NCBI GenBank assembly: GCA_028752905.1
Contig: JAQNBH010000142.1
Span: forward strand, 62,001-126,000
Direction of reading: 5' to 3'
DNA: 64,000 nucleotides
DNA from: Cladorhizidae sp. MBARI D1340-BT2
Lineage: Eukaryota > Porifera > Demospongiae > Poecilosclerida > Cladorhizidae
Position numbers and translations under genes: made by a program. The notes under the pieces were generated by a model. It did no database searches. It was not told the DNA's origin and saw only the letters and a list, made by a program, of their open reading frames with translations. The number at the start of each line of letters is the position of its first letter. Position 1 is the stretch's first letter. Below, one piece after another: positions 1,689 to 64,000 of this stretch.

Positions 1689-1694
1689 AACCAA

Positions 1695-19295: not shown

Positions 19296-19356
19296 CTAAT
19301 GAAATAGTTAGTAAAGTATCAATACAAAATGATGATAAAGGCAAACAGTCACTTAC

Positions 19357-19617: not shown

Positions 19618-19684
19618 CTAGAAGAAATAGTAACTAGTAAGTAAGTAATGCTGCATATAGTATAAGTATTAGTACTAGTAATAC

Positions 19685-19872: not shown

Positions 19873-19937
19873 CTGCACCAGCACTAATCAGCACTAATCA
19901 CCATAAGTCCCTCAACAATTTCTTTAGTTACACTCAC

Positions 19938-20086
19938 CTGAACAATTTTGAAATTCAATACTTTGTTGTTCATTAATTCAATAAAGGAGTACGTTCCAAA
20001 ATTGGCGCTGTGACCAGGACTGTCTGCTCTTCCATCACTTGCAACAATCAAACCTTGATTCTCTTCTTTCAGCTGAGCAAATAACC
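19938..20086 (-). other. Exon carrying DGRADSPGH, fused to the satellite
   Basis: It reads RRLFAQLKEENQG, then SDGRADSPGHSANFGTYSF and onward to KIVQ, then a GTGAGT donor at 19937-19932. Its 5' side (higher coordinates) passes without a break into the first satellite unit at about 20072-20090. It is the only part of the pre-DGR coding region preserved outside the array. Confidence 0.85.
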
Positions 20087-23000
20087 TTCTCTGGTGCTTC
20101 ACCCAAACAAGTATTGCTAACAGCTGGTTGTAAGTAATCTTCTCTGGTGCTTCACCCAAACAAGTATTGCTAACAGCTGGTTGTAAGTAACCTTCTCTGG
20201 TGCTTCACCCAAACAAGTATTGCTAACAGCTGGTTGTAAGTAACCTTCTCTGGTGCTTCACCCAAACAAGTATTGCTAACAGCTGGTTGTAAGTAACCTT
20301 CTCTGGTGCTTCACCCAAACAAGTATTGCTAACAAGTAGCTGGTTGTAAGTAATCTTCTCTGGTGCTTCACCCAAACAAGTATTGCTAACAGCTGGTTGT
20401 AAGTAATCTTCTCTGGTGCTTCACCCAAACAAGTATTGCTAACAGCTGGTTGTAAGTAATCTTCTCTGGTGCTTCACCCAAACAAGTATTGCTAACAGCT
20501 GGTTGTAAGTAACCTTCTCTGGTGCTTCACCCAAACAAGTATTGCTAACAGCTGGTTGTAAGTAACCTTCTCTGGTGCTTCACCCAAACAAGTATTGCTA
20601 ACAGCTGGTTGTAAATAACCTTCTCTGGTGCTTCACCCAATCAAGTATTGCTAACAGCTGGTTGTAAGTAATCTTCTCTGGTGCTTCACCCAAACAAGTA
20701 TTGCTAACAGCTGGTTGTAAGTAACCTTCTCTGGTGCTTCACCCAAACAAGTATTGCTAACAGCTGGTTGTAAGTAACCTTCTCTGGTGCTTCACCCAAA
20801 CAAGTATTGCTAACAGCTGGTTGTAAGTAATCTTCTCTGGTGCTTCACCCAAACAAGTATTGCTAACAGCTGGTTGTAAGTAATCTTCTCTGGTGCTTCA
20901 CCCAAACAAGTATTGCTAACAGCTGGTTGCAAGTAACCTTCTCTGGTGCTTCACCCAAACAAGTATTGCTAACAGCTGGTTGTAAATAATCTTCTCTGGT
21001 GCTTCACCCAAACAAGTATTGCTAACAAGTAGCTGGTTGCAAGTAACCTTCTCTGGTGCTTCACCCAAACAAGTATTGCTAACAGCTGGGCAAATAACCT
21101 TCTCTGGTGCTTCACCCAAACAAGTATTGCTAACAGCTGGTTGTAAGTAACCTTCTCTGGTGCTTCACCCAAACAAGTATTGCTAACAAGTAGCTGGTTG
21201 TAAGTAACCTTCTCTGGTGCTTCACCCAAACAAGTATTGCTAACAGCTGGTTGTAAGTAACCTTCTCTGGTGCTTCACCCAAGTATTGCTAACAGCTGGT
21301 TGTAAGTAACCTTCTCTGGTGCTTCACCCAAGTATTGCTAACAGCTGGTTGTAAGTAATCTTCTCTGGTGCTTCACCCAAACAAGTATTGCTAACAGCTG
21401 GTTGTAAGTAATCTTCTCTGGTGCTTCACCCAAACAAGTATTGCTAACAGCTGGTTGTAAGTAACCTTCTCTGGTGCTTCACCCAAACAAGTATTGCTAA
21501 CAGCTGGTTGTAAGTAACCTTCTCTGGTGCTTCACCCAAACAAGTATTGCTAACAGCTGGTTGTAAGTAACCTTCTCTGGTGCTTCACCCAAACAAGTAT
21601 TGCTAACAGCTGGTTGTAAGTAATCTTCTCTGGTGCTTCACCCAAACAAGTATTGCTAACAGCTGGTTGTAAGTAACCTTCTCTGGTGCTTCACCCAAAC
21701 GAGTATTGCTAACAGCTGGTTGTAAGTAACCTTCTCTGGTGCTTCACCCAAACAAGTATTGCTAACAAGTAGCTGGTTGCAAGTAACCTTCTCTGGTGCT
21801 TCACCCAAACAAGTATTGCTAACAGCTGGTTGTAAGTAACCTTCTCTCGTGCTTCACCCAAACAAGTATTGCTAACAGCTGGTTGTAAGTAACCTTCTCT
21901 GGTGCTTCACCCAAACAAGTATTGCTAACAGCTGGGCAAATAACCTTCTCTGGTGCTTCACCCAAACAAGTATTGCTAACAGCTGGTTGTAAGTAACCTT
22001 CTCTGGTGCTTCACCCAAACAAGTATTGCTAACAAGTAGCTGGTTGTAAGTAACCTTCTCTGGTGCTTTACCCAAACAAGTATTGCTAACAGCTGGTTGT
22101 AAGTAACCTTCTCTGGTGCTTCACCCAAGTATTGCTAACAGCTGGTTGTAAGTAACCTTCTCTGGTGCTTCACCCAAGTATTGCTAACAGCTGGTTGTAA
22201 GTAATCTTCTCTGGTGCTTCACCCAAACAAGTATTGCTAACAGCTGGTTGTAAGTAATCTTCTCTGGTGCTTCACCCAAACAAGTATTGCTAACAGCTGG
22301 TTGTAAGTAACCTTCTCTGGTGCTTCACCCAAACAAGTATTGCTAACAGCTGGTTGTAAGTAACCTTCTTTGGTGCTTCACCCAAACAAGTATTGCTAAC
22401 AGCTGGTTGTAAGTAACCTTCTCTGGTGCTTCACCCAAACAAGTATTGCTAACAAGTAGCTGGTTGCAAGTAACCTTCTCTGGTGCTTCACCCAAACAAG
22501 TATTGCTAACAGCTGGTTGTAAGTAACCTTCTCTGGTGCTTCACCCAAACAAGTATTGCTAACAGCTAACAGCTGGGCAAATAACCTTCTCTGGTGCTTC
22601 ACCCAAACAAGTATTGCTAACAGCTGGTTGTAAGTAACCTTCTCTGGTGCTTCACCCAAACAAGTATTGCTAACAAGTAGCTGGTTGTAAGTAACCTTCT
22701 CTGGTGCTTCACCCAAACAAGTATTGCTAACAGCTGGTTGTAAGTAACCTTCTCTGGTGCTTCACCCAAGTATTGCTAACAGCTGGTTGTAAGTAACCTT
22801 CTCTGGTGCTTCACCCAAGTATTGCTAACAGCTGGTTGTAAGTATCTTCTCTGGTGCTTCACCCAAACAAGTATTGCTAACAGCTGGTTGTAAGTAATCT
22901 TCTCTGGTGCTTCACCCAAACAAGTATTGCTAACAGCTGGTTGTAAGTAACCTTCTCTGGTGCTTCACCCAAACAAGTATTGCTAACAGCTGGTTGTAAG

Positions 23001-26000
23001 TAACCTTCTCTGGTGCTTCACCCAAACAAGTATTGCTAACAGCTGGTTGTAAGTAACCTTCTCTGGTGCTTCACCCAAACAAGTATTGCTAACAGCTGGT
23101 TGTAAGTAATCTTCTCTGGTGCTTCACCCAAACAAGTATTGCTAACAGCTGGTTGTAAGTAACCTTCTCTGGTGCTTCACCCAAACAAGTATTGCTAACA
23201 GCTGGTTGTAAGTAATCTTCTCTGGTGCTTCACCCAAACAAGTATTGCTAACAGCTGGTTGTAAGTAATCTTCTCTGGTGCTTCACCCAAACAAGTATTG
23301 CTAACAGCTGGTTGTAAGTAACCTTCTCTGGTGCTTCACCCAAACAAGTATTGCTAACAGCTGGTTGTAAGTAATCTTCTATGGTGCTTCACCCAAACAA
23401 GTATTGCTAACAGCTGGTTGTAAGTAACCTTCTCTGGTGCTTCACCCAAACAAGTATTGCTAACAGCTGGTTGTAAGTAACCTTCTCTGGTGCTTCACCC
23501 AAACAAGTATTGCTAACAAGTAGCTGGTTGCAAGTAACCTTCTCTGGTGCTTCACCCAAACAAGTATTGCTAACAGCTGGTTGTAAGTAACCTTCTCTGG
23601 TGCTTCACCCAAACAAGTATTGCTAACAGCTGGGCAAATAACCTTCTCTGGTGCTTCACCCAAACAAGTATTGCTAACAGCTGGTTGTAAGTAACCTTCT
23701 CTGGTGCTTCACCCAAACAAGTATTGCTAACAAGTAGCTGGTTGTAAGTAACCTTCTCTGGTGCTTCACCCAAACAAGTATTGCTAACAGCTGGTTGTAA
23801 GTAACCTTCTCTGGTGCTTCACCCAAACAAGTATTGCTAACAGCTGGTTGCAAGTAACCTTCTCTGGTGCTTCACCCAAACAAGTATTGCTAACAGCTGG
23901 TTGTAAGTAACCTTCTCTGGTGCTTCACCCAAACAAGTATTGCTAACAGATGGTTGTAAGTAACCTTCTCTGGTGCTTCACCCAAACAAGTATTGCTAAC
24001 AGCTGGTTGTAAGTAACCTTCTCTGGTGCTTCACCCAAACAAGTATTGCTAACAGCTGGTTGTAAGTAACCTTCTCTGGTGCTTCACCCAAACAAGTATT
24101 GCTAACAAGTAGCTGGTTGCAAGTAACCTTCTCTGGTGCTTCACCCAAACAAGTATTGCTAACAGCTGGTTGTAAATAATCTTCTCTGGTGCTTCACCCA
24201 AACAAGTATTGCTAACAGCTGGTTGTAAGTAACCTTCTCTGGTGCTTCACCCAAACAAGTATTGCTAACAGCTGGTTGTAAGTAACCTTCTCTGGTGCTT
24301 CACCCAAACAAGTATTGCTAACAGCTGGTTGTAAGTAACCTTCTCTGGTGCTTCACCCAAACAAGTATTGCTAACAGCTGGTTGTAAGTAATCTTCTCTG
24401 ATGCTTCACCCAAACAAGTATTGCTAACAGCTGGTTGTAAGTAACCTTCTCTGGTGCTTCACCCAAACAAGTATTGCTAACAGCTGGTTGTAAGTAATCT
24501 TCTTTGGTGCTTCACCCAAACAAGTATTGCTAACAGCTGGTTGTAAGTAACCTTCTCTGGTGCTTCACCCAAACAAGTATTGCTAACAGCTGGTTGTAAG
24601 TAACCTTCTCTGGTGCTTAACCCAAACAAGTATTGCTAACAGCTGGTTGTAAGTAACCTTCTCTGGTGCTTCAACCAAACAAGTATTGCTAACAGCTGGT
24701 TGTAAGTAACCTTCTCTGGTGCTTCACCCAAACAAGTATTGCTAACAGCTGGTTGTAAGTAACCTTCTCTGGTGCTTCACCCAAACAAGTATTGCTAACA
24801 GCTGGTTGTAAGTAACCTTCTCTGGTGCTTCACCCAAACAAGTATTGCTAACAGCTGGTTGTAAGTAACCTTCTCTGGTGCTTCACCCAAACAAGTATTG
24901 CTAACAGCTGGTTGTAAGTAACCTTCTCTGGTGCTTCACCCAAACAAGTATTGCTAACAGCTGGGCAAATAACCTTCTCTGGTGCTTCACCCAAACAAGT
25001 ATTGCTAACAGCTGGTTGTAAGTAACCTTCTCTGGTGCTTCACCCAAACAAGTATTGCTAACAGCTGGTTGTAAGTAACCTTCTCTAGTGCTTCACCCAA
25101 ACAAGTATTGCTAACAGCTGGTTGTAAGTAACCTTCTCTGGTGCTTCACCCAAACAAGTATTGCTAACAGCTGGTTGTAAGTAACCTTCTCTGGTGCTTC
25201 ACCCAAACAAGTATTGCTAACAAGTAGCTGGTTGTAAGTAACCTTCTCTGGTGCTTCACCCAAACAAGTATTGCTAACATCTGGTAGTAAGTAACCTTCT
25301 CTGGTGCTTCACCCAAGTATTGCTAACAGCTGGTTGTAAGTAACTTTCTCTGGTGCTTCACCCAAACAAGTATTGCTAACAGCTGGTTGTAAGTAACCTT
25401 CTCTGGTGCTTCACCCAAACAAGTATTGCTAACAGCTGGTTGTAAGTAACCTTCTCTGGTGCTTCACCCAAGTATTGCTAACAGCTGGTTGTAAGTAACC
25501 TTCTCTGGTGCTTCACCCAAACAAGTATTGCTAACAGCTGGTTGTAAGTAACCTTCTCTGGTGCTTCACCCAAACAAGTATTGCTAACAGCTGGTTGTAA
25601 GTAATCTTCTCTGGTGCTTCACCCAAACAAGTATTGCTAACAGCTGGTTGTAAGTAACCTTATCTGGTGCTTCACCCAAACAAGTATTGCTAACAGCTGG
25701 TTGTAAGTAACCTTCTTTGGTGCTTCAACCAAACAAGTATTGCTAACAGCTGGTTGTAAGTAACCTTCTCTGGTGCTTCACCCAAACAAGTATTGCTAAC
25801 AAGTAGCTGGTTGCAAGTAACCTTCTCTGGTGCTTCACCCAAACAAGTATTGCTAACAGCTGGTTGTAAGTAACCTTCTCTGGTGCTTCACCCAAACAAG
25901 TATTGCTAACAGCTGGGCAAATAACCTTCTCTGGTGCTTCACCCAAACAAGTATTGCTAACAGCTGGTTGTAAGTAACCTTCTCTGGTGCTTCACCCAAA

Positions 26001-29000
26001 CAAGTATTGCTAACAAGTAGCTGGTTGTAAGTAACCTTCTCTGGTGCTTCACCCAAACAAGTATTGCTAACAGCTGGTTGTAAGTAACCTTCTCTGGTGC
26101 TTCACCCAAGTATTGCTAACAGCTGGTTGTAAGTAACCTTCTCTGGTGCTTCACCCAAGTATTGCTAACAGCTGGTTGTAAGTATCTTCTCTGGTGCTTC
26201 ACCCAAACAAGTATTGCTAACAGCTGGTTGTAAGTAATCTTCTCTGGTGCTTCACCCAAACAAGTATTGCTAACAGCTGGTTGTAAGTAACCTTCTCTGG
26301 TGCTTCACCCAAACAAGTATTGCTAACAGCTGGTTGTAAGTAACCTTCTCTGGTGCTTCACCCAAACAAGTATTGCTAACAGCTGGTTGTAAGTAACCTT
26401 CTCTGGTGCTTCACCCAAACAAGTATTGCTAACAGCTGGTTGTAAGTAACCTTCTCTGGTGCTTCACCCAAACAAGTATTGCTAACAGCTGGTTGTAAGT
26501 AACCTTCTCTGGTGCTTCACCCAAACAAGTATTGCTAACAGCTGGTTGTAAGTAACCTTCTCTGGTGCTTCACCCAAACAAGTATTGCTAACAGCTGGTT
26601 GTAAGTAACCTTCTCTGGTGCTTCACCCAAACAAGTATTGCTAACAGCTGGTTGTAAGTAATCTTCTCTGGTGCTTCACCCAAACAAGTATTGCTAACAG
26701 CTGGTTGTAAGTAATCTTCTCTGGTGCTTCACCCAAACAAGTATTGCTAACAGCTGGTTGTAAGTAATCTTCTCTGGTGCTTCACCCAAACAAGTATTGC
26801 TAACAGCTGGTTGTAAGTAACCTTCTCTGGTGCTTCACCCAAACAAGTATTGCTAACAGCTGGTTGTAAGTAACCTTCTCTGGTGCTTCACCCAAACAAG
26901 TATTGCTAACAAGTAGCTGGTTACAAGTAACCTTCTCTGGTGCTTCACCCAAACAAGTATTGCTAACAAGTAGCTGGTTACAAGTAACCTTCTCTGGTGC
27001 TTCACCCAAACAAGTATTGCTAACAGCTGGTTGTAAGTAACCTTCTCTGGTGCTTCACCCAAACAAGTATTGCTAACAGCTGGGCAAATAACCTTCTCTG
27101 GTGCTTCACCCAAACAAGTATTGCTAACAGCTGGTTGTAAGTAACCTTCTCTGGTGCTTCACCCAAACAAGTATTGCTAACAAGTAGCTGGTTGTAAGTA
27201 ACCTTCTCTGGTGCTTCACCCAAACAAGTATTGCTAACAGCTGGTTGTAAGTAACCTTCTCTGGTGCTTCACCCAAACAAGTATTGCTAACAGCTGGTTG
27301 CAAGTAACCTTCTCTGGTGCTTCACCCAAACAAGTATTGCTAACAGCTGGTTGTAAGTAACCTTCTCTGGTGCTTCACCCAAACAAGTATTGCTAACAGC
27401 TGGTTGTAAGTAATCTTCTCTGGTGCTTCACCCAAACAAGTATTGCTAACAGCTGGTTGTAAGTAACCTTCTCTGGTGCTTCACCCAAACAAGTATTGCT
27501 AACAGCTGGTTGTAAGTAATCTTCTCTGGTGCTTCACCCAAACAAGTATTGCTAACAGCTGGTTGTAAGTAATCTTCTCTGGTGCTTCACCCAAACAAGT
27601 ATTGCTAACAGCTGGTTGTAAGTAACCTTCTCTGGTGCTTCACCCAAACAAGTATTGCTAACAGCTGGTTGTAAGTAATCTTCTCTGGTGCTTCACCCAA
27701 ACAAGTATTGCTAACAGCTGGTTGTAAGTAACCTTCTCTGGTGCTTCACCCAAACAAGTATTGCTAACAGCTGGTTGTAAGTAACCTTCTCTGGTGCTTC
27801 ACCCAAACAAGTATTGCTAACAAGTAGCTGGTTGCAAGTAACCTTCTCTGGTGCTTCACCCAAACAAGTATTGCTAACAGCTGGTTGTAAGTAACCTTCT
27901 CTGGTGCTTCACCCAAACAAGTATTGCTAACAGCTGGGCAAATAACCTTCTCTGGTGCTTCACCCAAACAAGTATTGCTAACAGCTGGTTGTAAGTAACC
28001 TTCTCTGGTGCTTCACCCAAACAAGTATTGCTAACAAGTAGCTGGTTGTAAGTAACCTTCTCTGGTGCTTCACCCAAACAAGTATTGCTAACAGCTGGTT
28101 GTAAGTAACCTTCTCTGGTGCTTCACCCAAACAGGTATTGCTAACAGCTGGTTGCAAGTAACCTTCTCTGGTGCTTCACCCAAACAAGTATTGCTAACAG
28201 CTGGTTGTAAGTAACCTTCTCTGGTGCTTCACCCAAACAAGTATTGCTAACAGCTGGTTGTAAGTAACCTTCTCTGGTGCTTCACCCAAACAAGTATTGC
28301 TAACAGCTGGTTGTAAGTAACCTTCTCTGGTGCTTCACCCAAACAAGTATTGCTAACAGCTGGTTGTAAGTAACCTTCTCTGGTGCTTCACCCAACAAGT
28401 ATTGCTAACAAGTAGCTGGTTGCAAGTAACCTTCTCTGGTGCTTCACCCAAACAAGTATTGCTAACAGCTGGTTGTAAATAATCTTCTCTGGTGCTTCAC
28501 CCAAACAAGTATTGCTAACAGCTGGTTGTAAGTAACCTTCTCTGGTGCTTCACCCAAACAAGTATTGCTAACAGCTGGTTGTAAGTAACCTTCTCTGGTG
28601 CTTCACCCAAACAAGTATTGCTAACAGCTGGTTGTAAGTAACCTTCTCTGGTGCTTCACCCAAACAAGTATTGCTAACAGCTGGTTGTAAGTAATCTTCT
28701 CTGGTGCTTCACCCAAACAAGTATTGCTAACAGCTGGTTGTAAGTAACCTTCTCTGGTGCTTCACCCAAACAAGTATTGCTAACAGCTGGTTGTAAGTAA
28801 TCTTCTCTGGTGCTTCACCCAAACAAGTATTGCTAACAGCTGGTTGTAAGTAACCTTCTCTGGTGCTTCACCCAAACAAGTATTGCTAACAGCTGGTTGT
28901 AAGTAACCTTCTCTGGTGCTTAACCCAAACAAGTATTGCTAACAGCTGGTTGTAAGTAACCTTCTCTGGTGCTTCAACCAAACAAGTATTGCTAACAGCT

Positions 29001-32000
29001 GGTTGTAAGTAACCTTCTCTGGTGCTTCACCCAAACAAGTATTGCTAACAGCTGGTTGTAAGTAACCTTCTCTGGTGCTTCACCCAAACAAGTATTGCTA
29101 ACAGCTGGTTGTAAGTAACCTTCTCTGGTGCTTCACCCAAACAAGTATTGCTAACAGCTGGTTGTAAGTAACCTTCTCTGGTGCTTCACCCAAACAAGTA
29201 TTGCTAACAGCTGGTTGTAAGTAACCTTCTCTGGTGCTTCACCCAAACAAGTATTGCTAACAGCTGGGCAAATAACCTTCTCTGGTGCTTCACCCAAACA
29301 AGTATTGCTAACAGCTGGTTGTAAGTAACCTTCTCTGGTGCTTCACCCAAACAAGTATTGCTAACAGCTGGTTGTAAGTAACCTTCTCTGGTGCTTCACC
29401 CAAACAAGTATTGTTAACAGCTGGTTGTAAGTAACCTTCTCTGGTGCTTCACCCAAACAAGTATTGCTAACAGCTGGTTGTAAGTAACCTTCTCTGGTGC
29501 TTCACCCAAACAAGTATTGCTAACAGCTGGTTGTAAGTAATCTTCTCTGGTGCTTCACCCAAACAAGTATTGCTAACAGCTGGTTGTAAGTAACCTTCTC
29601 TGGTGCTTCACCCAAACAAGTATTGCTAACAGCTGGTTGTAAGTAATCTTCTCTGGTGCTTCACCCAAACAAGTATTGCTAACAGCTGGTTGTAAGTAAC
29701 CTTCTCTGGTGCTTCACCCAAACAAGTATTGCTAACAGCTGGTTGTAAGTAACCTTCTCTGGTGCTTCACCCAAACAAGTATTGCTAACAAGTAGCTGGT
29801 TGCAAGTAACCTTCTCTGGTGCTTCACCCAAACAAGTATTGCTAACAGCTGGGCAAATAACCTTCTCTGGTGCTTCACCCAAACAAGTATTGCTAACAGC
29901 TGGTTGTAAGTAACCTTCTCTGGTGCTTCACCCAAACAAGTATTGCTAACAAGTAGCTGGTTGTAAGTAACCTTCTCTGGTGCTTCACCCAAACAAGTAT
30001 TGCTAACAGCTGGTTGTAAGTAACCTTCTCTGGTGCTTCACCCAAGTATTGCTAACAGCTGGTTGTAAGTAATCTTCTCTGGTGCTTCACCCAAACAAGT
30101 ATTGCTAACAGCTGGTTGTAAGTAATCTTCTCTGGTGCTTCACCCAAACAAGTATTGCTAACAGCTGGTTGTAAGTAACCTTCTCTGGTGCTTCACCCAA
30201 ACAAGTATTGCTAACAGCTGGTTGTAAGTAACCTTCTCTGGTGCTTCACCCAAACAAGTATTGCTAACAGCTGGTTGTAAGTAACCTTCTCTGGTGCTTC
30301 ACCCAAACAAGTATTGCTAACAGCTGGTTGTAAGTAACCTTCTCTGGTGCTTCACCCAAACAAGTATTGTTAACAGCTGGTTGTAAGTAACCTTCTCTGG
30401 TGCTTCACCCAAACAAGTATTGCTAACACGTAGCTGGTTGTAAGTAATCATCTCTGGTGCTTCACCCAAACAAGTATTGCTAACAGCTGGTTGTAAGTAA
30501 TCTTCTCTGGTGCTTCACCCAAACAAGTATTGCTAACAGCTGGTTGTAAGTAATCTTCTCTGGTGCTTCACCCAAACAAGTATTGCTAACAGCTGGTTGT
30601 AAGTAACCTTCTCTGGTGCTTCACCCAAACAAGTATTGCTAACAGCTGGTTGTAAGTAACCTTCTCTGGTGCTTCACCCAAACAAGTATTGCTAACAGCT
30701 GGTTGTAAGTAACCTTCTCTGGTGCTTCACCCAAACAAGTATTGCTAACAGCTGGTTGTAAGTAATCTTCTCTGGTGCTTCACCCAAACAAGTATTGCTA
30801 ACAGCTGGTTGTAAGTAACCTTCTCTGGTGCTTCACCCAAACAAGTATTGCTAACAGCTGGTTGTAAGTAACCTTCTCTGGTGCTTCACCCAAACAAGTA
30901 TTGCTAACAGCTGGTTGTAAGTAACCTTCTCTGGTGCTTCACCCAAACAAGTATTGCTAACAGCTGGTTGTAAGTAACCTTCTCTGGTGCTTCACCCAAA
31001 CAAGTATTGCTAACAGCTGGTTGTAAGTAATCTTCTCTGGTGCTTCACCCAAACAAGTATTGCTAACAGCTGGTTGTAAGTAATCTTCTCTGGTGCTTCA
31101 CCCAAACAAGTATTGCTAACAGCTGGTTGTAAGTAACCTTCTCTGGTGCTTCACCCAAACAAGTATTGCTAACAAGTAGCTGGTTGCAAGTAACCTTCTC
31201 TGGTGCTTCACCCAAACAAGTATTGCTAACAAGTAGCTGGTTGCAAGTAACCTTCTCTGGTGCTTCACCCAAACAAGTATTGCTAACAGCTGGGCAAATA
31301 ACCTTCTCTGTTGCTTCACCCAAACAAGTATTGCTAACAGCTGGTTGTAAGTAACCTTCTCTGGTGCTTCACCCAAACAAGTATTGCTAACAAGTAGCTG
31401 GTTGTAAGTAACCTTCTCTGGTGCTTCACCCAAACAAGTATTGCTAACAGCTGGTTGTAAGTAACCTTCTCTGGTGCTTCACCCAAGTATTGCTAACAGC
31501 TGGTTGTAAGTAACCTTCTCTGGTGCTTCACCCAAGTATTGCTAACAGCTGGTTGTAAGTAATCTTCTCTGGTGCTTCACCCAAACAAGTATTGCTAACA
31601 GCTGGTTGTAAGTAATCTTCTCTGGTGCTTCACCCAAACAAGTATTGCTAACAGCTGGTTGTATGTAAGTAACCTTCTCTGGTGCTTCACCCAAACAAGT
31701 ATTGCTAACAGCTGGTTGTAAGTAACCTTCTCTGGTGCTTCACCCAAACAAGTATTGCTAACAGCTGGTTGTAAGTAACCTTCTCTGGTGCTTCACCCAA
31801 ACAAGTATTGCTAACAGCTGGTTGTAAGTAATCTTCTCTGGTGCTTCACCCAAACAAGTATTGCTAACAGCTGGTTGTAAGTAACCTTCTCTGGTGCTTC
31901 ACCCAAACGAGTATTGCTAACAGCTGGTTGTAAGTAACCTTCTCTGGTGCTTCACCCAAACAAGTATTGCTAACAAGTAGCTGGTTGCAAGTAACCTTCT

Positions 32001-47000: not shown

Positions 47001-48060
47001 AGCTGGTTGTAAGTAACCTTCTCTGGTGCTTCACCCAAACAAGTATTGCTAACAGCTGGTTGTAAGTAACCTTCTCTGGTGCTTCACCCAAACAAGTATT
47101 GCTAACAGCTGGTTGTAAGTAACCTTCTCTGGTGCTTCACCCAAACAAGTATTGCTAACAAGTAGCTGGTTGCAAGTAACCTTCTCTGGTGCTTCACCCA
47201 AACAAGTATTGCTAACAGCTGGTTGTAAATAATCTTCTCTGGTGCTTCACCCAAACAAGTATTGCTAACAGCTGGTTGTAAGTAACCTTCTCTGGTGCTT
47301 CACCCAAACAAGTATTGCTAACAGCTGGTTGTAAGTAACCTTCTCTGGTGCTTCACCCAAACAAGTATTGCTAACAGCTGGTTGTAAGTAACCTTCTCTG
47401 GTGCTTCACCCAAACAAGTATTGCTAACAGCTGGTTGTAAGTAATCTTCTCTGGTGCTTCACCCAAACAAGTATTGCTAACAGCTGGTTGTAAGTAACCT
47501 TCTCTGGTGCTTCACCCAAACAAGTATTGCTAACAGCTGGTTGTAAGTAATCTTCTCTGGTGCTTCACCCAAACAAGTATTGCTAACAGCTGGTTGTAAG
47601 TAACCTTCTCTGGTGCTTCACCCAAACAAGTATTGCTAACAGCTGGTTGTAAGTAACCTTCTCTGGTGCTTCACCCAAACAAGTATTGCTAACAGCTGGT
47701 TGTAAGTAACCTTCTCTGGTGCTTCACCCAAACAAGTATTGCTAACAGCTGGTTGTAAGTAACCTTCTCTGGTGCTTCACCCAAACAAGTATTGCTAACA
47801 GCTGGTTGTAAGTAACCTTCTCTGGTGCTTCACCCAAACAAGTATTGCTAACAGCTGGTTGTAAGTAACCTTCTCTGGTGCTTCACCCAAACAAGTATTG
47901 CTAACAGCTGGTTGTAAGTAACCTTCTCTGGTGCTTCACCCAAACAAGTATTGCTAACAGCTGGTTGTAAGTAACCTTCTCTGGTTCTTCACCCAAACAA
48001 GTATTGCTAACTGCTGGGAAAATAACCTTCTCTGGTGCTTCACCCAAACAAGTATTGCTA
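20072..48060. repeat. Satellite domain A: higher-order blocks marked by 51-bp junction units
   Basis: Units with gggcaaataacc recur at about 21093, 21935, 22573, 23632, 24963, 25915, 27082, 27934, 29273, 29849, 31292, 32091, 32723, 33515, 34308, 34999, 36051, 36899, 37531, 38535, 39534, 40753, 41600, 42234 and 43291, and further at 45685 and 46742; decayed forms (gggaaaataacc) lie at about 45002 and 48015. Most are followed by one 53-bp unit, a 57-bp unit and often two 49-bp units. The spacing of 0.6-1.7 kb indicates amplification of multi-unit blocks, with longer repeats such as the 2536-bp offset between about 33060-33660 and 35600-36190. Confidence 0.85.
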
Positions 48061-52900: not shown

Positions 52901-55900
52901 CAGCTGGTTGTAAGTAATCTTCTCTGGTGCTTCACCCAAACAAGTATTGCTAACAGCTGGTTGTAAGTAACCTTCTCTGGTGCTTCACCCAAACAAGTAT
53001 TGCTAACAGCTGGTTGTAAGTAACCTTCTCTGGTGCTTCAGCCAAACAAGTATTGCTAACAGCTGGTTGTAAGTAACCTTCTCTGGTGCTTCAGCCAAAC
53101 AAGTATTGCTAACAGCTGGTTGTAAGTAACCTTCTCTGGTGCTTCACCCAAACAAGTATTGCTAACAGCTGGTTGTAAGTAACCTTCTCTGGTGCTTCAC
53201 CCAAACAAGTATTGCTAACAGCTGGTTGTAAGTAACCTTCTCTGGTGCTTCACCCAAACAAGTATTGCTAACAGCTGGTTGTAAGTAACCTTCTCTGGTG
53301 CTTCACCCAAACAAGTATTGCTAACAGCTGGTTGTAAGTAACCTTCTCTGGTGCTTCACCCAAACAAGTATTGCTAACAGCTGGTTGTAAGTAACCTTCT
53401 CTGGTGATTCACCCAAACAAGTATTGCTAACAGCTGGTTGTAAGTAACCTTCTCTGGTGCTTCACCCAAACAAGTATTGCTAACAGCTGGTTGTAAGTAA
53501 CCTTCTCTGGTGCTTCAGCCAAATAAGTATTGCTAACAGCTGGTTGTAAGTAACCTTCTCTGGTGCTTCACCCAAACAAGTATTGCTAACAGCTGGTTGT
53601 AAGTAATCTTCTCTGGTGCTTCACCCAAACAAGTATTGCTAACAGCTGGTTGTAAGTAACCTTCTCTGGTGCTTCACCCAAACAAGTATTGCTAACAGCT
53701 GGTTGTAAGTAACCTTCTCTGGTGCTTCAGCCAAACAAGTATTGCTAACAGCTGGTTGTAAGTAACCTTCTCTGGTGCTTCACCCAAACAAGTATTGCTA
53801 ACAGCTGGTTGTAAGTAACCTTCTCTGGTGCTTCACCCAAACAAGTATTGCTAACAGCTGGTTGTAAGTAACCTTCTCTGGTGCTTCACCCAAACAAGTA
53901 TTGCTAACAGCTGGTTGTAAGTAACCTTCTCTGGTGCTTCACCCAAACAAGTATTGCTAACAGCTGGTTGTAAGTAACCTTCTCTGGTGCTTCACCCAAA
54001 CAAGTATTGCTAACAGCTGGTTGTAAGTAATCTTCTCTGGTGCTTCACCCAAACAAGTATTGCTAACAGCTGGTTGTAAGTAACCTTCTCTGGTGCTTCA
54101 CCCAAACAAGTATTGCTAACAGCTGGTTGTAAGTAACCTTCTCTGGTGCTTCACCCAAGTATTGCTAACAGCTGGTTGTATGTAAGTAACCTTCTCTGGT
54201 GCTTCACCCAAACAAGTATTGCTAACAGCTGGTTGTAAGTAGAACTTCTCTGGTGCTTCACCCAAACAAGTATTGCTAACAGCTGGTTGTAAGTAACCTT
54301 CTCTGGTGCTTCACCCAAACAAGTATTGCTAACAGCTGGTTGTAAGTAACCTTCTCTGGTGCTTCACCCAAACAAGTATTGCTAACAGCTGGTTGTAAGT
54401 AACCTTCTCTGGTGCTTCACCCAAACAAGTATTGCTAACAGCTGGTTGTAAGTAACCTTCTCTGGTGCTTCACCCAAACAAGTATTGCTAACAGCTGGTT
54501 GTAAGTAATCTTCTCTGGTGCTTCACCCAAACAAGTATTGCTAACAGCTGGTTGTAAGTAACCTTCTCTGGTGCTTCACCCAAACAAGTATTGCTAACAG
54601 CTGGTTGTAAGTAACCTTCTCTGGTGCTTCACCCAAGTATTGCTAACAGCTGGTTGTAAGTAACCTTCTCTGGTGCTTCACCCAAACAAGTATTGCTAAC
54701 AGCTGGTTGTAAGTAACCTTCTCTGGTGCTTCACCCAAGTATTGCTAACAGCTGGTTGTAAGTAACCTTCTCTGGTGCTTCACCCAAACAAGTATTGCTA
54801 ACAGCTGGTTGTAAGTAATCTTCTCTGGTGCTTCACCCAAACAAGTATTGCTAACAGCTGGTTGTAAGTAACCTTCTCTGGTGCTTCACCCAAACAAGTA
54901 TTGCTAACAGCTGGTTGTAAGTAACCTTCTCTGGTGCTTCACCCAAACAAGTATTGCTAACAGCTGGTTGTAAGTAACCTTCTCTGGTGCTTCAGCCAAA
55001 CAAGTATTGCTAACAGCTGGTTGTAAGTAACCTTCTCTGGTGCTTCACCCAAACAAGTATTGCTAACAGCTGGTTGTAAGTAACCTTCTCTGGTGCTTCA
55101 CCCAAACAAGTATTGCTAACAGCTGGTTGTAAGTAACCTGCTCTGGTGCTTCACCCAAACAAGTATTGCTAACAGCTGGTTGTAAGTAACCTTCTCTGGT
55201 GCTTCACCCAAACAAGTATTGCTAACAGCTGGTTGTAAGTAACCTTCTCTGGTGCTTCACCCAAACAAGTATTGCTAACAGCTGGTTGTAAGTAACCTTC
55301 TCTGGTGCTTCACCCAAACAAGTATTGCTAACAGCTGGTTGTAAGTAACCTTCTCTGGTGCTTCACCCAAACAAGTATTGCTAACAGCTGGTTGTAAGTA
55401 ACCTTCTCTGGTGCTTCACCCAAACAAGTATTGCTAACAAGTAGCTGGTTGTAAGTAACCTTCTCTGGTGCTTCACCCAAACAAGTATTGCTAACAGCTG
55501 GTTGTAAGTAACCTTCTCTGGTGCTTCACCCAAACAAGTATTGCTAACAGCTTGTTGTAAGTAATCTTCTCTGGTGCTTCACCCAAACAAGTATTGCTAA
55601 CGGCTGGTTGTAAGTAATCTTCTCTGGTGCTTCACCCAAACAAGTATTGCTAACAGCTGGTTGTAAGTAACCTTCTCTGGTGCTTCACCCAAACAAGTAT
55701 TGCTAACAGCTGGTTGTAAGTAATCTTCTCTGGTGCTTCATCCAAACAAGTATTGCTAACAGCTGGTTGTAAGTAACCTTCTCTGGTGCTTCACCCAAAC
55801 AAGTATTGCTAACAGCTGGTTGTAAGTAACATTCTCTGGTGCTTCACCCAAACAAGTATTGCTAACAGCTGGTTGTAAGTAACCTTCTCTGGTGCTTCAC

Positions 55901-57850
55901 CCAAACAAGTATTGCTAACAGCTGGTTGTAAGTAACCTTCTCTGGTGCTTCACCCAAACAAGTATTGCTAACAGCTGATTGTAAGTAACCTTCTCTGGTG
56001 CTTCACCCAAACAAGTATTGCTAACAGCTGGTTGTAAGTAACCTTCTCTGGTGCTTCACCCAAACAAGTATTGCTAACAGCTGGTTGTAAGTAACCTTCT
56101 CTGGTGCTTCACCCAAACAAGTATTGCTAACAGCTGGTTGTAAGTAACCTTCTCTGGTGCTTCACCCAAACAAGTATTGCTAACAGCTGGTTGTAAGTAA
56201 CCTTCTCTGGTGCTTCACCCAAACAAGTATTGCTAACAGCTGGTTGTAAATAACCTTCTCTGGTGCTTCACCCAAACAAGTATTGCTAACAGCTGGTTGT
56301 AAGTAACCTTCTCTGGTGCTTCACCCAAACAAGTATTGCTAACAAGTAGCTGGTTGTAAGTAACCTTCTCTGGTGCATCACCTAAACAAGTATTGCTAAC
56401 AGCTGGTTGTAAGTAACCTTCTCTGGTGCTTCACCCAAACAAGTATTGCTAACAAGTAGCTGGTTGTAAGTAACCTTCTCTGGTGCTTCACCCAAACAAG
56501 TATTGCTAACAGCTGGTTGTAAATAACCTTCTCTGGTGCTTCACCCAAACAAGTATTGCTAACAGCTGGTTGTAAGTAACCTTCTCTGGTGCTTCACCCA
56601 AACAAGTATTGCTAACGCTGGTTGTAAGTAACCTTCTCTGGTGCTTCACCCAAACAAGTATTGCTAACAGCTGGTTGTAAGTAACCTTCTCTGGTGCTTC
56701 AGCCAAACAAGTATTGCTAACAGCTGGTTGTAAGTAACCTTCTCTGGTGCTTCACCCAAACAAGTATTGCTAACAGCTGGTTGTAAGTAACCTTCTCTGG
56801 TGCTTCACCCAAACAAGTATTGCTAACAGCTGGTTGTAAGTAATCTTCTCTGGTGCTTCACCCAAACAAGTATTGCTAACAGCTGGTTGTAAGTAACCTT
56901 CTCTGGTGCTTCACCCAAACAAGTATTGCTAACAGCTGGTTGTAAGTAACCTTCTCTGGTGCTTCAGCCAAACAAGTATTGCTAACAGCTGGTTGTAAGT
57001 AACCTTCTCTGGTGCTTCAGCCAAACAAGTATTGCTAACAGCTGGTTGTAAGTAACCTTCTCTGGTGCTTCACCCAAACAAGTATTGCTAACAGCTGGTT
57101 GTAAGTAACCTTCTCTGGTGCTTCACCCAAACAAGTATTGCTAACAGCTGGTTGTAAGTAACCTTCTCTGGTGCTTCACCCAAACAAGTATTGCTAACAG
57201 CTGGTTGTAAGTAACCTTCTCTGGTGCTTCACCCAAACAAGTATTGCTAACAGCTGGTTGTAAGTAACCTTCTCTGGTGCTTCACCCAAACAAGTATTGC
57301 TAACAGCTGGTTGTAAGTAACCTTCTCTGGTGATTCACCCAAACAAGTATTGCTAACAGCTGGTTGTAAGTAACCTTCTCTGGTGCTTCACCCAAACAAG
57401 TATTGCTAACAGCTGGTTGTAAGTAACCTTCTCTGGTGCTTCAGCCAAATAAGTATTGCTAACAGCTGGTTGTAAGTAACCTTCTCTGGTGCTTCACCCA
57501 AACAAGTATTGCTAACAGCTGGTTGTAAGTAATCTTCTCTGGTGCTTCACCCAAACAAGTATTGCTAACAGCTGGTTGTAAGTAACCTTCTCTGGTGCTT
57601 CACCCAAACAAGTATTGCTAACAGCTGGTTGTAAGTAACCTTCTCTGGTGCTTCAGCCAAACAAGTATTGCTAACAGCTGGTTGTAAGTAACCTTCTCTG
57701 GTGCTTCACCCAAACAAGTATTGCTAACAGCTGGTTGTAAGTAACCTTCTCTGGTGCTTCACCCAAACAAGTATTGCTAACAGCTGGTTGTAAGTAACCT
57801 TCTCTGGTGCTTCACCCAAACAAGTATTGCTAACAGCTGGTTGTAAATAA
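50000..57850. repeat. Large tandem duplication within the satellite, offset 3926 bp
   Basis: Rare variants repeat at exactly the same spacing: aagtagaact at 50311 and 54237, cctgctctgg at 51211 and 55137, the agcttgttg/aacggctgg pair near 51622 and 55550, and agccaaataag near 53517 and 57443. The boundaries are approximate. A tgtatgtaag variant at about 54178 occurs only in the second copy, so the copies have begun to diverge. Confidence 0.85.
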
Positions 57851-60379
57851 CCTTCTCTGGTGCTTCACCCAAACAAGTATTGCTAACAGCTGGTTGTAAG
57901 TAATCTTCTCTGGTGCTTCACCCAAACAAGTATTGCTAACAGCTGGTTGTAAGTAACCTTCTCTGGTGCTTCACCCAAACAAGTATTGCTAACAGCTGGT
58001 TGTAAATAACCTTCTCTGGTGCTTCACCCAAACAAGTATTGCTAACAGCTGGTTGTAAGTAACCTTCTCTGGTGCTTCACCCAAACAAGTATTGCTAACA
58101 AGTAGCTGGTTGTAAGTAACCTTCTCTGGTGCATCACCCAAACAAGTATTGCTAACAGCTGGTTGTAAGTAACCTTCTCTGGTGCTTCACCCAAACAAGT
58201 ATTGCTAACAAGTAGCTGGTTGTAAGTAACCTTCTCTGGTGCTTCACCCAAACAAGTATTGCTAACAGCTGGTTGTAAATAACCTTCTCTGGTGCTTCAC
58301 CCAAACAAGTATTGCTAACAGCTGGTTGTAAGTAACCTTCTCTGGTGCTTCACCCAAACAAGTATTGCTAACAGCTGGTTGTAAGTAACCTTCTCTGGTG
58401 CTTCACCCAAACAAGTATTGCTAACAGCTGGTTGTAAGTAACCTTCTCTGGTGCTTCACCCAAACAAGTATTGCTAACAGCTGGTTGTAAGTAACCTTCT
58501 CTGGTGCTTCACCCAAACAAGTATTGCTAACAGCTGGTTGTAAGTAACCTTCTCTGGTGCTTCACCCAAACAAGTATTGCTAACAGCTGGTTGTAAGTAA
58601 CCTTCTCTGGTGCTTCACCCAAACAAGTATTGCTAACAGCTGGTTGTAAGTAACCTTCTCTGGTGATTCACCCAAACAAGTATTGCTAACAGCTGGTTGT
58701 AAGTAACCTTCTCTGGTGCTTCACCCAAACAAGTATTGCTAACAGCTGGTTGTAAGTAACCTTCTCTGGTGCTTCAGCCAAATAAGTATTGCTAACAGCT
58801 GGTTGTAAGTAACCTTCTCTGGTGCTTCACCCAAACAAGTATTGCTAACAGCTGGTTGTAAGTAATCTTCTCTGGTGCTTCACCCAAACAAGTATTGCTA
58901 ACAGCTGGTTGTAAGTAACCTTCTCTGGTGCTTCACCCAAACAAGTATTGCTAACAGCTGGTTGTAAGTAACCTTCTCTGGTGCTTCAGCCAAACAAGTA
59001 TTGCTAACAACTGGTTGTAAGTAACCTTCTCTGGTGCTTCACCCAAACAAGTATTGCTAACAGCTGGTTGTAAGTAACCTTCTCTGGTGCTTCACCCAAA
59101 CAAGTATTGCTAACAGCTGGTTGTAAGTAACCTTCTCTGGTGCTTCACCCAAACAAGTATTGCTAACAGCTGGTTGTAAATAACCTTCTCTGGTGCTTCA
59201 CCCAAACAAGTATTGCTAACAGCTGGTTGTAAGTAATCTTCTCTGGTGCTTCACCCAAACAAGTATTGCTAACAGCTGGTTGTAAGTAACCTTCTCTGGT
59301 GCTTCACCCAAACAAGTATTGCTAACAGCTGGTTGTAAGTAACCTTCTCTGGTGCTTCACCCAAACAAGTATTGCTAGCAGCTGGTTGTAAGTAACCTTC
59401 TCTGGTGCTTCAGCCAAACAAGTATTGCTAACAGATGGTTGTAAGTAACCTTCTCTGGTGCTTCACCCAAACAAGTATTGCTAACAGCTGGTTGTAAGTA
59501 ACCTTCTCTGATGCTTCACCCAAACAAGTATTGCTAACAGCTGGTTGTAAGTAACCTGCTCTGGTGCTTCACCCAAACAAGTATTGCTAACAGCTGGTTG
59601 TAAGTAACCTTCTCTGGTGCTTCACCCAAACAAGTATTGCTAACAGCTGGTTGTAAGTAACCTTCTCTGGTGCTTCAGCCAAACAAGTATTGCTAACAGC
59701 TGGTTGTAAGTAACCTTCTCTGGTGCTTCACCCAAACAAGTATTGCTAACAGCTGGTTGTAAGTAACCTTCTCTGGTGCTTCACCCAAACAAGTATTGCT
59801 AACAGCTGGTTGTAAGTAACCTTCTCTGGTGCTTCACCCAAACAAGTATTGCTAACAGCTGGTTGTAAGTAACCTTCTCTGGTGCTTCACCCAAACAAGT
59901 ATTGCTAACAGCCGGTTGTAAGTAACCTTCTCTGGTGCTTCACCCAAACAAGTATTGCTAACAGCTGGTTGTAAGTAACCTTCTCTGGTGCTTCACCCAA
60001 ACAAGTATTGCTAACAGCTGGTTGTAAGTAACCTTCTCTGGTGCTTCACCCAAACAAGTATTGCTAACAGCTGGTTGTAAGTAACCTTCTCTGGTGCTTC
60101 ACCCAAACAAGTATTGCTAACAGCTGGTTGTAAGTAACCTTCTCTGGTGCTTCACCCAAACAAGTATTGCTAACAGCTGGTTGTAAGTAACCTTCTCTGG
60201 TGCTTCACCCAAACAAGTATTGCTAACAGCTGGTTGTAAGTAACCTTCTCTGGTGCTTCACCCAAACAAGTATTGCTAACAGCTGGTTGTAAGTAACCTT
60301 CTCTGGTGCTTCACCCAAACAAGTATTGCTAACAGCTGGTTGTAAGTAACCTTCTCTGGTGCTTCACCCAAACAAGTAT

Positions 60380-63300
60380 TGCTAACAAGTAGCTGGTTGT
60401 AAGTAACCTTCTCTGGTGCTTCACCCAAACAAGTATTGCTAACAGCTGGTTGTAAGCAACCTTCTCTGGTGCTTCACCCAAACAAGTATTGCTAACAGCT
60501 TGTTGTAAGTAATCTTCTCTGGTGCTTCACCCAAACAAGTATTGCTAACGGCTGGTTGTAAGTAATCTTCTCTGGTGCTTCACCCAAACAAGTATTGCTA
60601 ACAGCTGGTTGTAAGTAACCTTCTCTGGTGCTTCACCCAAACAAGTATTGCTAACAGCTGGTTGTAAATAACCTTCTCTGGTGCTTCACCCAAACAAGTA
60701 TTGCTAACAGCTGGTTGTAAATAATCTTCTCTGGTGCTTCACCCAAACAAGTATTGCTAACAGCTGGTTGTAAGTAACCTTCTCTGGTGCCTCACCCAAA
60801 CAAGTATTGCTAACAGCTGGTTGTAAGTAACCTTCTCTGGTGCTTCACCCAAACAAGTATTGCTAACAAGTAGCTGGTTGTAAGTAACCTTCTCTGGTGC
60901 TTCACCCAAACAAGTATTGCTAACAGCTGGTTGTAAGTAACCTTCTCTGGTGCTTCACCCAAACAAGTATTGCTAACAGCTGGTTGTAAGTAACCTTTCT
61001 CTGGTGCTTCACCCAAACAAGTATTGCTAACAAGTAGTTGGTTGTAAGTAACCTTCTCTGGTGCTTCACCCAAACAAGTATTGCTAACAGCTGGTTGTAA
61101 ATAACCTTCTCTGGTGCTTCACCCAAACAAGTATTGCTAACAGCTGGTTGTAAATAATCTTCTCTGGTGCTTCACCCAAACAAGTATTGCTAACAGCTGG
61201 TTGTAAGTAACCTTCTCTGGTGCTTCACCCAAACAAGTATTGCTAACAGCTGGTTGTAAGTAACCTTCTCTGGTGCTTCACCCAAGTATTACTAACAGCT
61301 GGTTGTAAGTAACCTTCTCTGGTGCTTCACCCAAACAAGTATTGCTAACAGCTGGTTGTAAATAACCTTCTCTGGTGCTTCACCCAAACAAGTATTGCTA
61401 ACAGCTGGTTGTAAGTAACCTTCTCTGGTGCTTCACCCAAACAAGTATTGCTAACAGCTGGTTGTAAGTAACCTTCTCTGGTGCTTCACCCAAACAAGTA
61501 TTGCTAACAGCTGGTTGTAAGTAACCTTCTCTGGTGCTTCACCCAAACAAGTATTGCTAACAGCTGGTTGTAAGTAACCTTTTCTGGTGCTTCACCCAAA
61601 CAAGTATTGCTAACAGCTGGTTGTAAGTAACCTTCTCTGGTGCTTCACCCAAACAAGTATTGCTAACAGCTGGTTGTAAGTAACCTTCTCTGGTGCTTCA
61701 CCCAAACAAGTATTGCTAACAGCTGGTTGTAAGTAACCTTCTCTGGTGCGTCACCCAAACAAGTATTGCTAACAGCTGGTTGTAAGTAACCTTCTCTGGT
61801 GCTTCAGCCAAACAAGTATTGCTAACAGCTGGTTGTAAGTAACCTTCTCTGGTGCTTCACCCAAACAAGTATTGCTAACAGCTGGTTGTAAGTAATCTTC
61901 TCTGGTGCTTCACCCAAACAAGTATTGCTAACAGCTGGTTGTAAGTAACCTTCTCTGGTGCTTCACCCAAACAAGTATTGCTAACAGCTGGTTGTAAGTA
62001 ACCTTCTCTGGTGCTTCACCCAAACAAGTATTGCTAACAAGTAGCTGGTTGTAAGTAACCTTCTCTGGTGCTTCACCCAAACAAGTATTGCTAACAGCTG
62101 GTTGTAAGCAACCTTCTCTGGTGCTTCACCCAAACAAGTATTGCTAACAGCTTGTTGTAAGTAATCTTCTCTGGTGCTTCACCCAAACAAGTATTGCTAA
62201 CGGCTGGTTGTAAGTAATCTTCTCTGGTGCTTCACCCAAACAAGTATTGCTAACAGCTGGTTGTAAGTAACCTTCTCTGGTGCTTCACCCAAACAAGTAT
62301 TGCTAACAGCTGGTTGTAAATAACCTTCTCTGGTGCTTCACCCAAACAAGTATTGCTAACAGCTGGTTGTAAATAATCTTCTCTGGTGCTTCACCCAAAC
62401 AAGTATTGCTAACAGCTGGTTGTAAGTAACCTTCTCTGGTGCTTCACCCAAACAAGTATTGCTAACAGCTGGTTGTAAGTAACCTTCTCTGGTGCTTCAC
62501 CCAAACAAGTATTGCTAACAAGTAGCTGGTTGTAAGTAACCTTCTCTGGTGCTTCACCCAAACAAGTATTGCTAACAGCTGGTTGTAAGTAACCTTCTCT
62601 GGTGCTTCACCCAAACAAGTATTGCTAACAGCTGGTTGTAAGTAACCTTTCTCTGGTGCTTCACCCAAACAAGTATTGCTAACAAGTAGTTGGTTGTAAG
62701 TAACCTTCTCTGGTGCTTCACCCAAACAAGTATTGCTAACAGCTGGTTGTAAATAACCTTCTCTGGTGCTTCACCCAAACAAGTATTGCTAACAGCTGGT
62801 TGTAAATAATCTTCTCTGGTGCTTCACCCAAACAAGTATTGCTAACAGCTGGTTGTAAGTAACCTTCTCTGGTGCTTCACCCAAACAAGTATTGCTAACA
62901 GCTGGTTGTAAGTAACCTTCTCTGGTGCTTCACCCAAGTATTACTAACAGCTGGTTGTAAGTAACCTTCTCTGGTGCTTCACCCAAACAAGTATTGCTAA
63001 CAGCTGGTTGTAAATAACCTTCTCTGGTGCTTCACCCAAACAAGTATTGCTAACAGCTGGTTGTAAGTAACCTTCTCTGGTGCTTCACCCAAACAAGTAT
63101 TGCTAACAGCTGGTTGTAAGTAACCTTCTCTGGTGCTTCACCCAAACAAGTATTGCTAACAGCTGGTTGTAAGTAACCTTCTCTGGTGCTTCACCCAAAC
63201 AAGTATTGCTAACAGCTGGTTGTAAGTAACCTTTTCTGGTGCTTCACCCAAACAAGTATTGCTAACAGCTGGTTGTAAGTAACCTTCTCTGGTGCTTCAC

Positions 63301-63680
63301 CCAAACAAGTATTGCTAACAGCTGGTTGTAAGTAACCTTCTCTGGTGCTTCACCCAAACAAGTATTGCTAACAGCTGGTTGTAAGTAACCTTCTCTGGTG
63401 CGTCACCCAAACAAGTATTGCTAACAGCTGGTTGTAAGTAACCTTCTCTGGTGCTTCAGCCAAACAAGTATTGCTAACAGCTGGTTGTAAGTAACCTTCT
63501 CTGGTGCTTCACCCAAACAAGTATTGCTAACAGCTGGTTGTAAGTAATCTTCTCTGGTGCTTCACCCAAACAAGTATTGCTAACAGCTGGTTGTAAGTAA
63601 CCTTCTCTGGTGCTTCACCCAAACAAGTATTGCTAACAGCTGGTTGTAAGTAACCTTCTCTGGTGCTTCAGCCAAACAAG
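60380..63680. repeat. Recent tandem duplication within the satellite, offset 1652 bp
   Basis: Rare variants recur at identical spacing: aagcaacc at 60454 and 62106, aacctttctctgg near 60993 and 62645, agtattactaac near 61289 and 62940, ccttttctgg near 61580 and 63232, gtgcgtcacc near 61749 and 63401, gcttcagcc near 61805 and 63457. I saw no difference between the copies over this stretch, so the event is recent or is an assembly duplication. Confidence 0.85.
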
Positions 63681-64000
63681 TATTGCTAACAGCTGGTTGT
63701 AAGTAACCTTCTCTGGTGCTTCACCCAAACAAGTATTGCTAACAGCTGGTTGTAAGTAACCTTCTCTGGTGCTTCACCCAAACAAGTATTGCTAACAGCT
63801 GGTTGTAAGTAATCTTCTCTGGTGCTTCACCCAAACAAGTATTGCTAACAGCTGGTTGTAAGTAACCTTCTCTGGTGCTTCACCCAAACAAGTATTGCTA
63901 ACAGCTGGTTGTAAGTAACCTTCTCTGGTGCTTCACCCAAACAAGTATTGCTAACAGATGGTTGTAAGTAACCTTCTCTGGTGCTTCAGCCAAACAAGTA

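What the first reader, a model, noticed from the sequence alone, without database searches (positions are those of the whole stretch)
19938..64000. A 44-kb satellite born from a coding exon
The satellite abuts an exon of the DGRxDSPGH family, and its unit is that exon's own sequence. On the minus strand the 49-bp version of the unit reads in frame YLQPAVSNTWVKHQRRL; the surviving exon starts with QRRLFAQLKEENQG and continues to DGRADSPGH. Relatives have a YLxPxVxxxWxxHQ-type segment exactly there. The 49-bp unit begins with GGTTACTTAC, and the exon continues after RR with GGTTATTTGC, so slippage between two GGTTA sites 49 bases apart explains the first duplication. The sequence thus preserves founder, junction and amplified product side by side.
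Basis: partly seen in the sequence, partly recalled or inferred. Interest (0 to 1): 0.92.

Follow-up and report, generated by a model that had tools for sequence, protein, structure and literature searches.

The report
Satellite born inside a transposase-like exon
The repeat unit of a 45-kb satellite is a slightly altered copy of a 49-50-base piece of one exon of a predicted transposase-type gene; it likely began by slippage between two five-base words in that exon, and one-copy, three-copy and roughly 850-copy versions sit in the same genome.

Summary
Confirmed: the array from 20082 to the window's end is built of an exon's own sequence, and that exon's 3' half abuts it. It runs on to contig C47:127,623 (about 45.5 kb) and ends in another satellite. 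C8 holds three units between both exon halves; C34 and C32 keep the 5' half.

Not supported: slippage between two GGTTA sites. All six loci found with the 5' half read AGAAGTTC(T/C)ACTTAC, and C5 has no GGTTA nearby. C5 instead has AGAAG twice, 50 bp apart, and CCAGCTG twice, 47 bp apart. The junction predicted from AGAAG occurs 1,618 times genome-wide (reversed control 0), though in only 2 of the window's 827 units; the CCAGCTG junction accounts for the 51-bp units. The commonest unit (GGTTA/GATTA + CTTAC) joins the exon's two edges and needs a second exchange.

The family is distantly Mutator-like. Satellites from transposon coding sequence are known; unusual is founder-like copy, both edges, a short array and long arrays in one assembly.

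The parts
19938..20081 (-). Surviving 3' half of the founder exon (RRLFAQLKEENQGLIVASDGRADSPGHSANFGTYSFIELMNNKVLNFKIVQ), ending at a CAG|GTGAGT splice donor
   Evidence: the same exon with one copy of the segment in C5 and C1
20082..64000 (-). Satellite array, mostly 53-bp units; continues outside the window to C47:127,623
21263..21311 (-). Example of a 49-bp unit without the TTTG insertion
   Evidence: 45 of 827 units have 49 bp
21080..21099 (-). Junction of a 51-bp unit: GGTTATTTGC of the exon's 3' continuation fused at CCAGCTG to the unit (27 of 827 window units)
18430..19937 (-). Remnant of the rest of the gene (intron and later exons); window 18430-20082 matches C8 (97.4%), C5 (90.3%) and C1 (84-85%) by BLAST
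18342..18396 (-). Segment present once here and in C8 but expanded to ten 54-bp copies at C5; no match in the two C1 loci held

Best explanation
The 53-bp satellite at 20082-64000 is built of altered copies of a 49-50-bp piece of one exon of a predicted Mutator-like transposase gene, and it most likely began as a tandem duplication between two AGAAG words 50 bp apart in that exon. Shown: one-copy loci (C5, C1 twice), a three-unit locus with both exon halves (C8), loci with only the 5' half (C34, C32) or only the 3' half (C47 = window, C11, C13 twice, C36, C38, C40, C223), and array contigs on which the capped lists show neither half (C44, C48, C50, C51, C224). Inferred, step 1: slippage or a template switch between the AGAAG words gave the junction AGAGAAG|TTCTACTTAC. 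Inferred, step 2: once two copies existed, exchange between inner units and the exon's 3' edge at TA gave the now dominant junction AGAAG(A/G)TTA|CTTAC (49 bp), and a separate exchange at the 7-bp word CCAGCTG gave the 51-bp unit (47 + 4). Inferred, step 3: two 4-bp insertions (TTTG, ACTT) made the 53- and 57-bp units; duplication of blocks of many units expanded the array; segmental copying likely spread it to the distal parts of some chromosome-size contigs and to unplaced contigs.
For: C5:17628059-17628379 encodes the whole exon with one segment copy, 139-codon open frame. 17 of 17 protein relatives found carry the segment once at that place. Direct repeats of 4 or more bases at 44-55 bp spacing in the 150-bp stretch of C5: CCAGCTG (47), AGAAG (50), CAGA (48), no others. 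One duplication at AGAAG or at CCAGCTG reproduces two observed junctions. The AGAAG junction occurs 872 + 746 times in the genome, reversed control 0; exact C5 50-mers lie in arrays of C223, C36, C44, C11 and C48, and 3 of 12 units of C34, next to the 5' half, have this junction. 5' half: 6 places found in the genome, all AGAAGTTC(T/C)A. The 8 array-edge loci plus C8 are split from C5 and C1 by a branch with 100/99 support. In the window a 41-unit block repeats at a lag of 74 units, and a module with the 51-bp unit recurs.
Against: The dominant 49/53-bp junction is not produced by AGAAG slippage alone. AGAAG-junction units are rare in the exon-3'-edge arrays (3 of 1,142 units, 2 of 827 in the window), and the short arrays of C8 (2 of 2 inner units) and C32 (19 of 19), which keep the 5' half, have only the GTTA junction. 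If the 49-bp duplication came first, AGAAG units could be later exchanges with the 5' edge. C8 is not a clean ancestral stage: its units carry both derived insertions, so it may be a contracted array. C5 is the nearest single-copy paralogue found, not the founder locus. Transposase kinship rests on distant relatives.
Confidence: 0.72

Rival explanations
1. One reading: the first duplication was slippage between two GGTTA sites 49 bases apart.
For: The commonest 49-bp unit does begin GGTTACTTAC and the window exon continues GGTTATTTGC.
Against: No GGTTA on the 5' side in 6 of 6 loci found that keep it; the three single copies have GATTA on the 3' side.
Confidence: 0.05
2. A 49-bp duplication with only TA at the breakpoints (TTCTA|CTTAC to GATTA|TTTGC) came first; AGAAG-type units were added later by exchange with the exon's 5' edge.
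For: 49-bp-register units dominate the 1,593 units sorted; the window has 12 exact GATTACTTAC 49-bp units; C8 and C32 have only this register.
Against: 2-bp homology against 5 bp; exact C5 50-mers with the AGAAG junction persist on five contigs.
Confidence: 0.25
3. Reverse direction: a pre-existing satellite unit was captured into the exon.
For: None found.
Against: The segment is part of the protein in 17 of 17 relatives at 39-87% identity and in divergent paralogues, several of which read YLQPSIFSVW or close to it at the same place.
Confidence: 0.02
4. Assembly artefact.
For: Long satellites are hard to assemble; several array contigs are short and unplaced.
Against: The same edges recur in independent contigs, on chromosome-size contigs C8, C11 and C13 too, with private substitutions.
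Confidence: 0.02

Closest known systems
Satellites derived from coding parts of transposable elements (examples in PMC9659126, section 6, read whole: chicken HinfI/CR1 ORF2, Phodopus PROsat/L1 ORF2, rye E900/GAG)
   Same: The unit comes from a protein-coding stretch of an element-type gene; later amplification and spread.
   Different: Here single-copy paralogues, both exon edges, a short array and long arrays lie in one assembly, so candidate founding junctions can be read; the unit is a short piece inside one exon.
Satellites grown from tandem repeats inside elements (DINE-TR1 of a Helitron, passage of PMC6947457; PisTR-A in the Ogre 3'UTR, PMC9659126 section 6)
   Same: A short tandem duplication inside an element copy expands to a satellite; this gene family has other internal tandem repeats too.
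   Different: The segment is not repeated in its single-copy relatives; the start is a new duplication.
De novo satellite birth by replication slippage followed by dissemination (general model, passage of PMC5615363, section 3.4)
   Same: Duplication at a unique site, then expansion and spread.
   Different: Here three junction classes can be tied to named short words or edges of a founder-like sequence.

Membership tests
Satellite DNA | Long head-to-tail arrays of near-identical units | tested here: met
   827.6 copies, 95% matches
Satellite DNA | Arrays at several chromosomal places | tested here: met
   Matches on C11, C13, C36, C38, C40, C43, C44, C47, C48, C50, C51, C223, C224 and others (lists capped); stretches read on C11, C36, C43, C44, C47, C48, C50, C223, C38 are arrays
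Satellite DNA | Heterochromatic or centromeric location | not testable with these tools
   Listed array matches lie in the last 2.6 Mb of C11 and the last 0.82 Mb of C13 (capped lists). Eight contig ends read (C11, C13, C36, C44, C47, C48, C50, C223) hold at most one TTAGGG; other telomere motifs were not tried. No cytology.
Higher-order repeat satellite | Regular multi-unit period across the array | tested here: inconclusive
   Blocks of up to 41 units repeat (lag 74) and a module recurs in roughly the exon-proximal 530 units, but the best single lag gives 34% unit identity against a 27% baseline
Mutator-like transposase (PF20700) | Match to the Pfam model above its cut-off | tested here: inconclusive
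   Founder-type exon: no match. Of five relatives scanned, P0018 matches at 37.7 bits (cut-off 26.5), P0003 at 19.5, below it; P0002, P0007 and P0013 do not
Mutator-like transposable element | Terminal inverted repeats and target-site duplication | not tested
   Element ends were not mapped; the two C1 copies match each other over the whole 9.8 kb compared, so no border was seen

The most novel reading that the evidence does not exclude
The satellite was not made by one duplication but fed from the two broken edges of its founder exon: arrays of the 3'-edge class carry exon-3' letters (GATTA in 221 and TTTGCCCAGCTG in 31 of 1,142 units, the AGAAG junction in 3), other arrays carry 5'-edge letters (AGAAG|TTCTA in 73 of 561 units, TTTGCCC in 0, GATTA in 8). 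Edge imprinting would let the history of a satellite be read from its units.
Probability: 0.35. Interest if true: 0.7.

Novelty: new member of a known kind. Interest (0 to 1): 0.55.

Why it matters
How a new satellite starts is mostly inferred from mature arrays whose founder is lost (general knowledge). Here a single-copy paralogue, both edges of the split exon, a three-unit locus and long arrays are all in one genome, so the founding junction, later edge exchanges and block duplications can be ordered and tested in relatives.

Tried and rejected
GGTTA slippage: rejected on 6 of 6 5' sides found. Exon captured from the satellite: rejected. Array coding for protein: unit lengths 53 and 49 are not multiples of 3, and the array's listed ORFs of at least 100 aa are four of 102-120 aa. 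C8 as a true early intermediate: not accepted, since its units carry both derived 4-bp insertions. 5' half at the far end of the window's array: not there. Pfam on the exon: no Mutator match; one weak hit below cut-off. First protein search (59-residue region of P0001): nothing. Papers: eight searches seen as listings; and the motif search found no paper; three papers seen as passages, of one of them section 6 whole. The organism was not identified.

Left unanswered: whole-genome counts of the 49-bp and 51-bp junctions and the DNA search for 3' exon halves. The A/B split of arrays was drawn after seeing the unit types; one stretch put in B (C11:40.123 Mb) looks like A and was left in B. Left out of both groups: C8 (2 units), C34 (12), C32 (19) and the C38 edge (3). 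In one search the B count included two overlapping stretches (L045, L046); one search repeats it without the overlap and with four more stretches.

Full report
What is there. The window is C47:62001-126000 of an 857-Mb, 325-contig assembly of an unnamed organism. From 20082 to its end it is one tandem array of period 53, 827.6 copies. On the minus strand 827 whole units can be cut out: 655 of 53 bp, 79 of 57, 45 of 49, 28 of 51, 9 of 48 and 11 others, of 89 different sequences. Beyond the window the array runs to C47:127,623 and gives way to a 39-bp satellite, so it is about 45.5 kb long. At its low end it abuts the 3' half of an exon that ends in a CAG|GTGAGT donor at 19938.

A founder-like sequence exists. 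A protein search of the same genome finds the exon whole at C5:17628059-17628379, 139 codons open, and in two near-identical copies on C1 with one TAA each. The C5 exon reads FFRYQKFYLQPAVSNTWVKHQRRLFAQLKEENQGLIVAGDGRADSPGHSAKFG, with exactly one copy of the segment. Seventeen database proteins (39-87% identity) all have one copy at that place, and divergent paralogues here have the segment too, for example YLQPSIFSVW. So the segment is old coding sequence and the array is derived.

Both edges of the split exon are in the genome. The 5' half was found at six places: the three single-copy loci, C8, C34 and C32. C8 has three 57-bp units between intact 5' and 3' halves. C34 and C32 have the 5' half and short arrays (12 and 19 whole units) that end in a sequence found downstream of the gene at C8. 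The 3' half alone borders arrays at C47 (window), C11, C13 (twice), C36, C38, C40 and C223; these counts are lower bounds, as only the best candidates are scored. In a tree of the 3' flank the eight array-edge loci and C8 are separated from C5 and C1 by a branch with 100/99 support; without gaps, window-C8 identity is 97.7%, window-C5 95.5%, window-C1 90.6-90.9%. One origin, after the split from C5, is the simplest reading; inside the clade the branches are poorly resolved.

How the duplication started. In 6 of 6 loci found with the 5' half the segment is preceded by AGAAGTTC(T/C)A; no GGTTA lies near it in C5, and the 3' side of the three single-copy loci is GATTA. In the 150 bp around it in C5 the direct repeats of four or more bases at 44-55 bp spacing are CCAGCTG (47), AGAAG (50) and CAGA (48). 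Copying the span between the two AGAAG words predicts AGAGAAG|TTCTACTTACAACC, and copying between the CCAGCTG words predicts TTATTTGC|CCAGCTGTTAGC. Both occur. The first is found 872 + 746 times in the genome against 0 for the reversed control, and arrays on C223, C36, C44, C11 and C48 hold units identical to the C5 50-mer. The second is the 51-bp unit: 27 of 827 in the window, 4 of 72 at the end of C11; 51 is 47 plus the 4-bp TTTG insertion. The dominant junction, AGAAG(A/G)TTA|CTTAC (49 bp, 53 with TTTG), joins the exon's 3' letters to its 5' letters at TA. I infer that it came second, by exchange between an inner unit and the exon-side edge, but the order is not proven. Against it: the AGAAG junction is in only 2 of the window's 827 units and in none of the inner units of C8 (0 of 2) and C32 (0 of 19), though in 3 of 12 of C34.

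Edge signatures. In nine stretches that I call A (those at 3' edges plus C47:126k, C43 and the end of C11), 3 of 1,142 units have the AGAAG junction, 31 the 51-bp junction and 221 begin GATTA. In fourteen other stretches (B) it is 73 of 561, 0 and 8. C8, C34, C32 and the C38 edge (36 units in all) were in neither group. Grouping was done after seeing the data, units within an array are not independent, and one B stretch (C11:40.123 Mb, 0 AGAAG junctions, 5 GATTA) looks like A. The pattern fits arrays fed from different edges of the exon.

Growth. In the window, blocks of up to 41 units repeat exactly (lag 74), and a module holding the 51-bp unit recurs through roughly the exon-proximal 530 units; no 51-bp unit of that type is seen beyond. 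Listed array stretches lie in the last 2.6 Mb of C11 and the last 0.82 Mb of C13, and the C8 locus 0.2 Mb from its contig end, while the single copies are interior (C5 17.6 of 34.4 Mb; C1 28.9 and 30.0 of 38.8 Mb); the lists are capped, so arrays elsewhere are not excluded. Whether these ends are telomeric or centromeric was not settled: eight contig ends read hold at most one TTAGGG, and other telomere motifs were not tried.

Perhaps not a lone case. The same gene family shows other segment growth: a 54-bp piece present once in the window and in C8 is in ten copies at C5 (no match in the C1 loci), and a 39-bp piece, open in one frame as 13 codons, has about 6 copies at C5, 7 at each C1 locus, 21 at C8, 17 and 16 at C34 and C32.

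What the gene is. The founder-type exon itself has no Pfam match to a transposase. Its relative P0018 matches Mutator-like transposase PF20700 above cut-off (37.7 against 26.5 bits), P0003 below it (19.5), and P0002, P0007 and P0013 do not; the other 12 relatives were not scanned by me, and in the search listing only P0018 carries that domain. I call it Mutator-like as a prediction. C1, C8, C34, C32 and some of the divergent copies carry stops; in C8, C34 and C32 the stop reported lies at or next to the first array unit.

Literature. PMC9659126 (section 6 read whole, other passages) lists satellites from transposon ORFs and states that any part of an element can serve; PMC6947457 and PMC5615363 (passages) give the general models. 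So the kind is known; the completeness of the series is the interest here. I make no claim that nothing similar is in print.

Noticed in passing
4615-15734: A second satellite, 51-bp unit, 218 copies, 98% matches; 51 is 17 codons, so very long open frames occur on both strands. Its founder is unknown.
   Followed up: no
1-4600 and 15735-17050: Around the 51-bp satellite lie short protein-like frames; of six scanned, one has a ribonucleotide reductase large-chain match (696-1103, 26.8 bits, cut-off 23.9). A run of 29 G lies at 3305-3333. Perhaps an inserted foreign element.
   Followed up: partly
17709-18232: 36-bp minisatellite (14.7 copies) also found beside the gene at C5 (24.7 copies).
   Followed up: partly
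18430 and 19066-19238: C5 and C8 have about 1.6 kb at window 18430 that the window lacks; seven other array-edge copies share a gap of about 172 bp (19066-19238) that the window and C8 do not have.
   Followed up: partly
G000:C47:127624-366560 (L013, L014, L047-L057, L067): Beyond the array come 39-bp, 34-bp and 61-bp satellites, and the same 53-bp satellite again in the three stretches read between 331.8 kb and the contig end, with 15 of 96 units of the AGAAG junction.
   Followed up: partly
G000:C44: Matches to the satellite in alternating orientation (+ and -) along the contig.
   Followed up: no
G000:C5:17627255-17627524 (L009:3756-4025); C8 (L012:5561-6419): A 39-bp tandem repeat upstream in the same gene, open in one frame as GVQAMPSRSSDSV, about 6-7 copies in the single-copy loci and 16-21 beside arrays.
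   Followed up: partly
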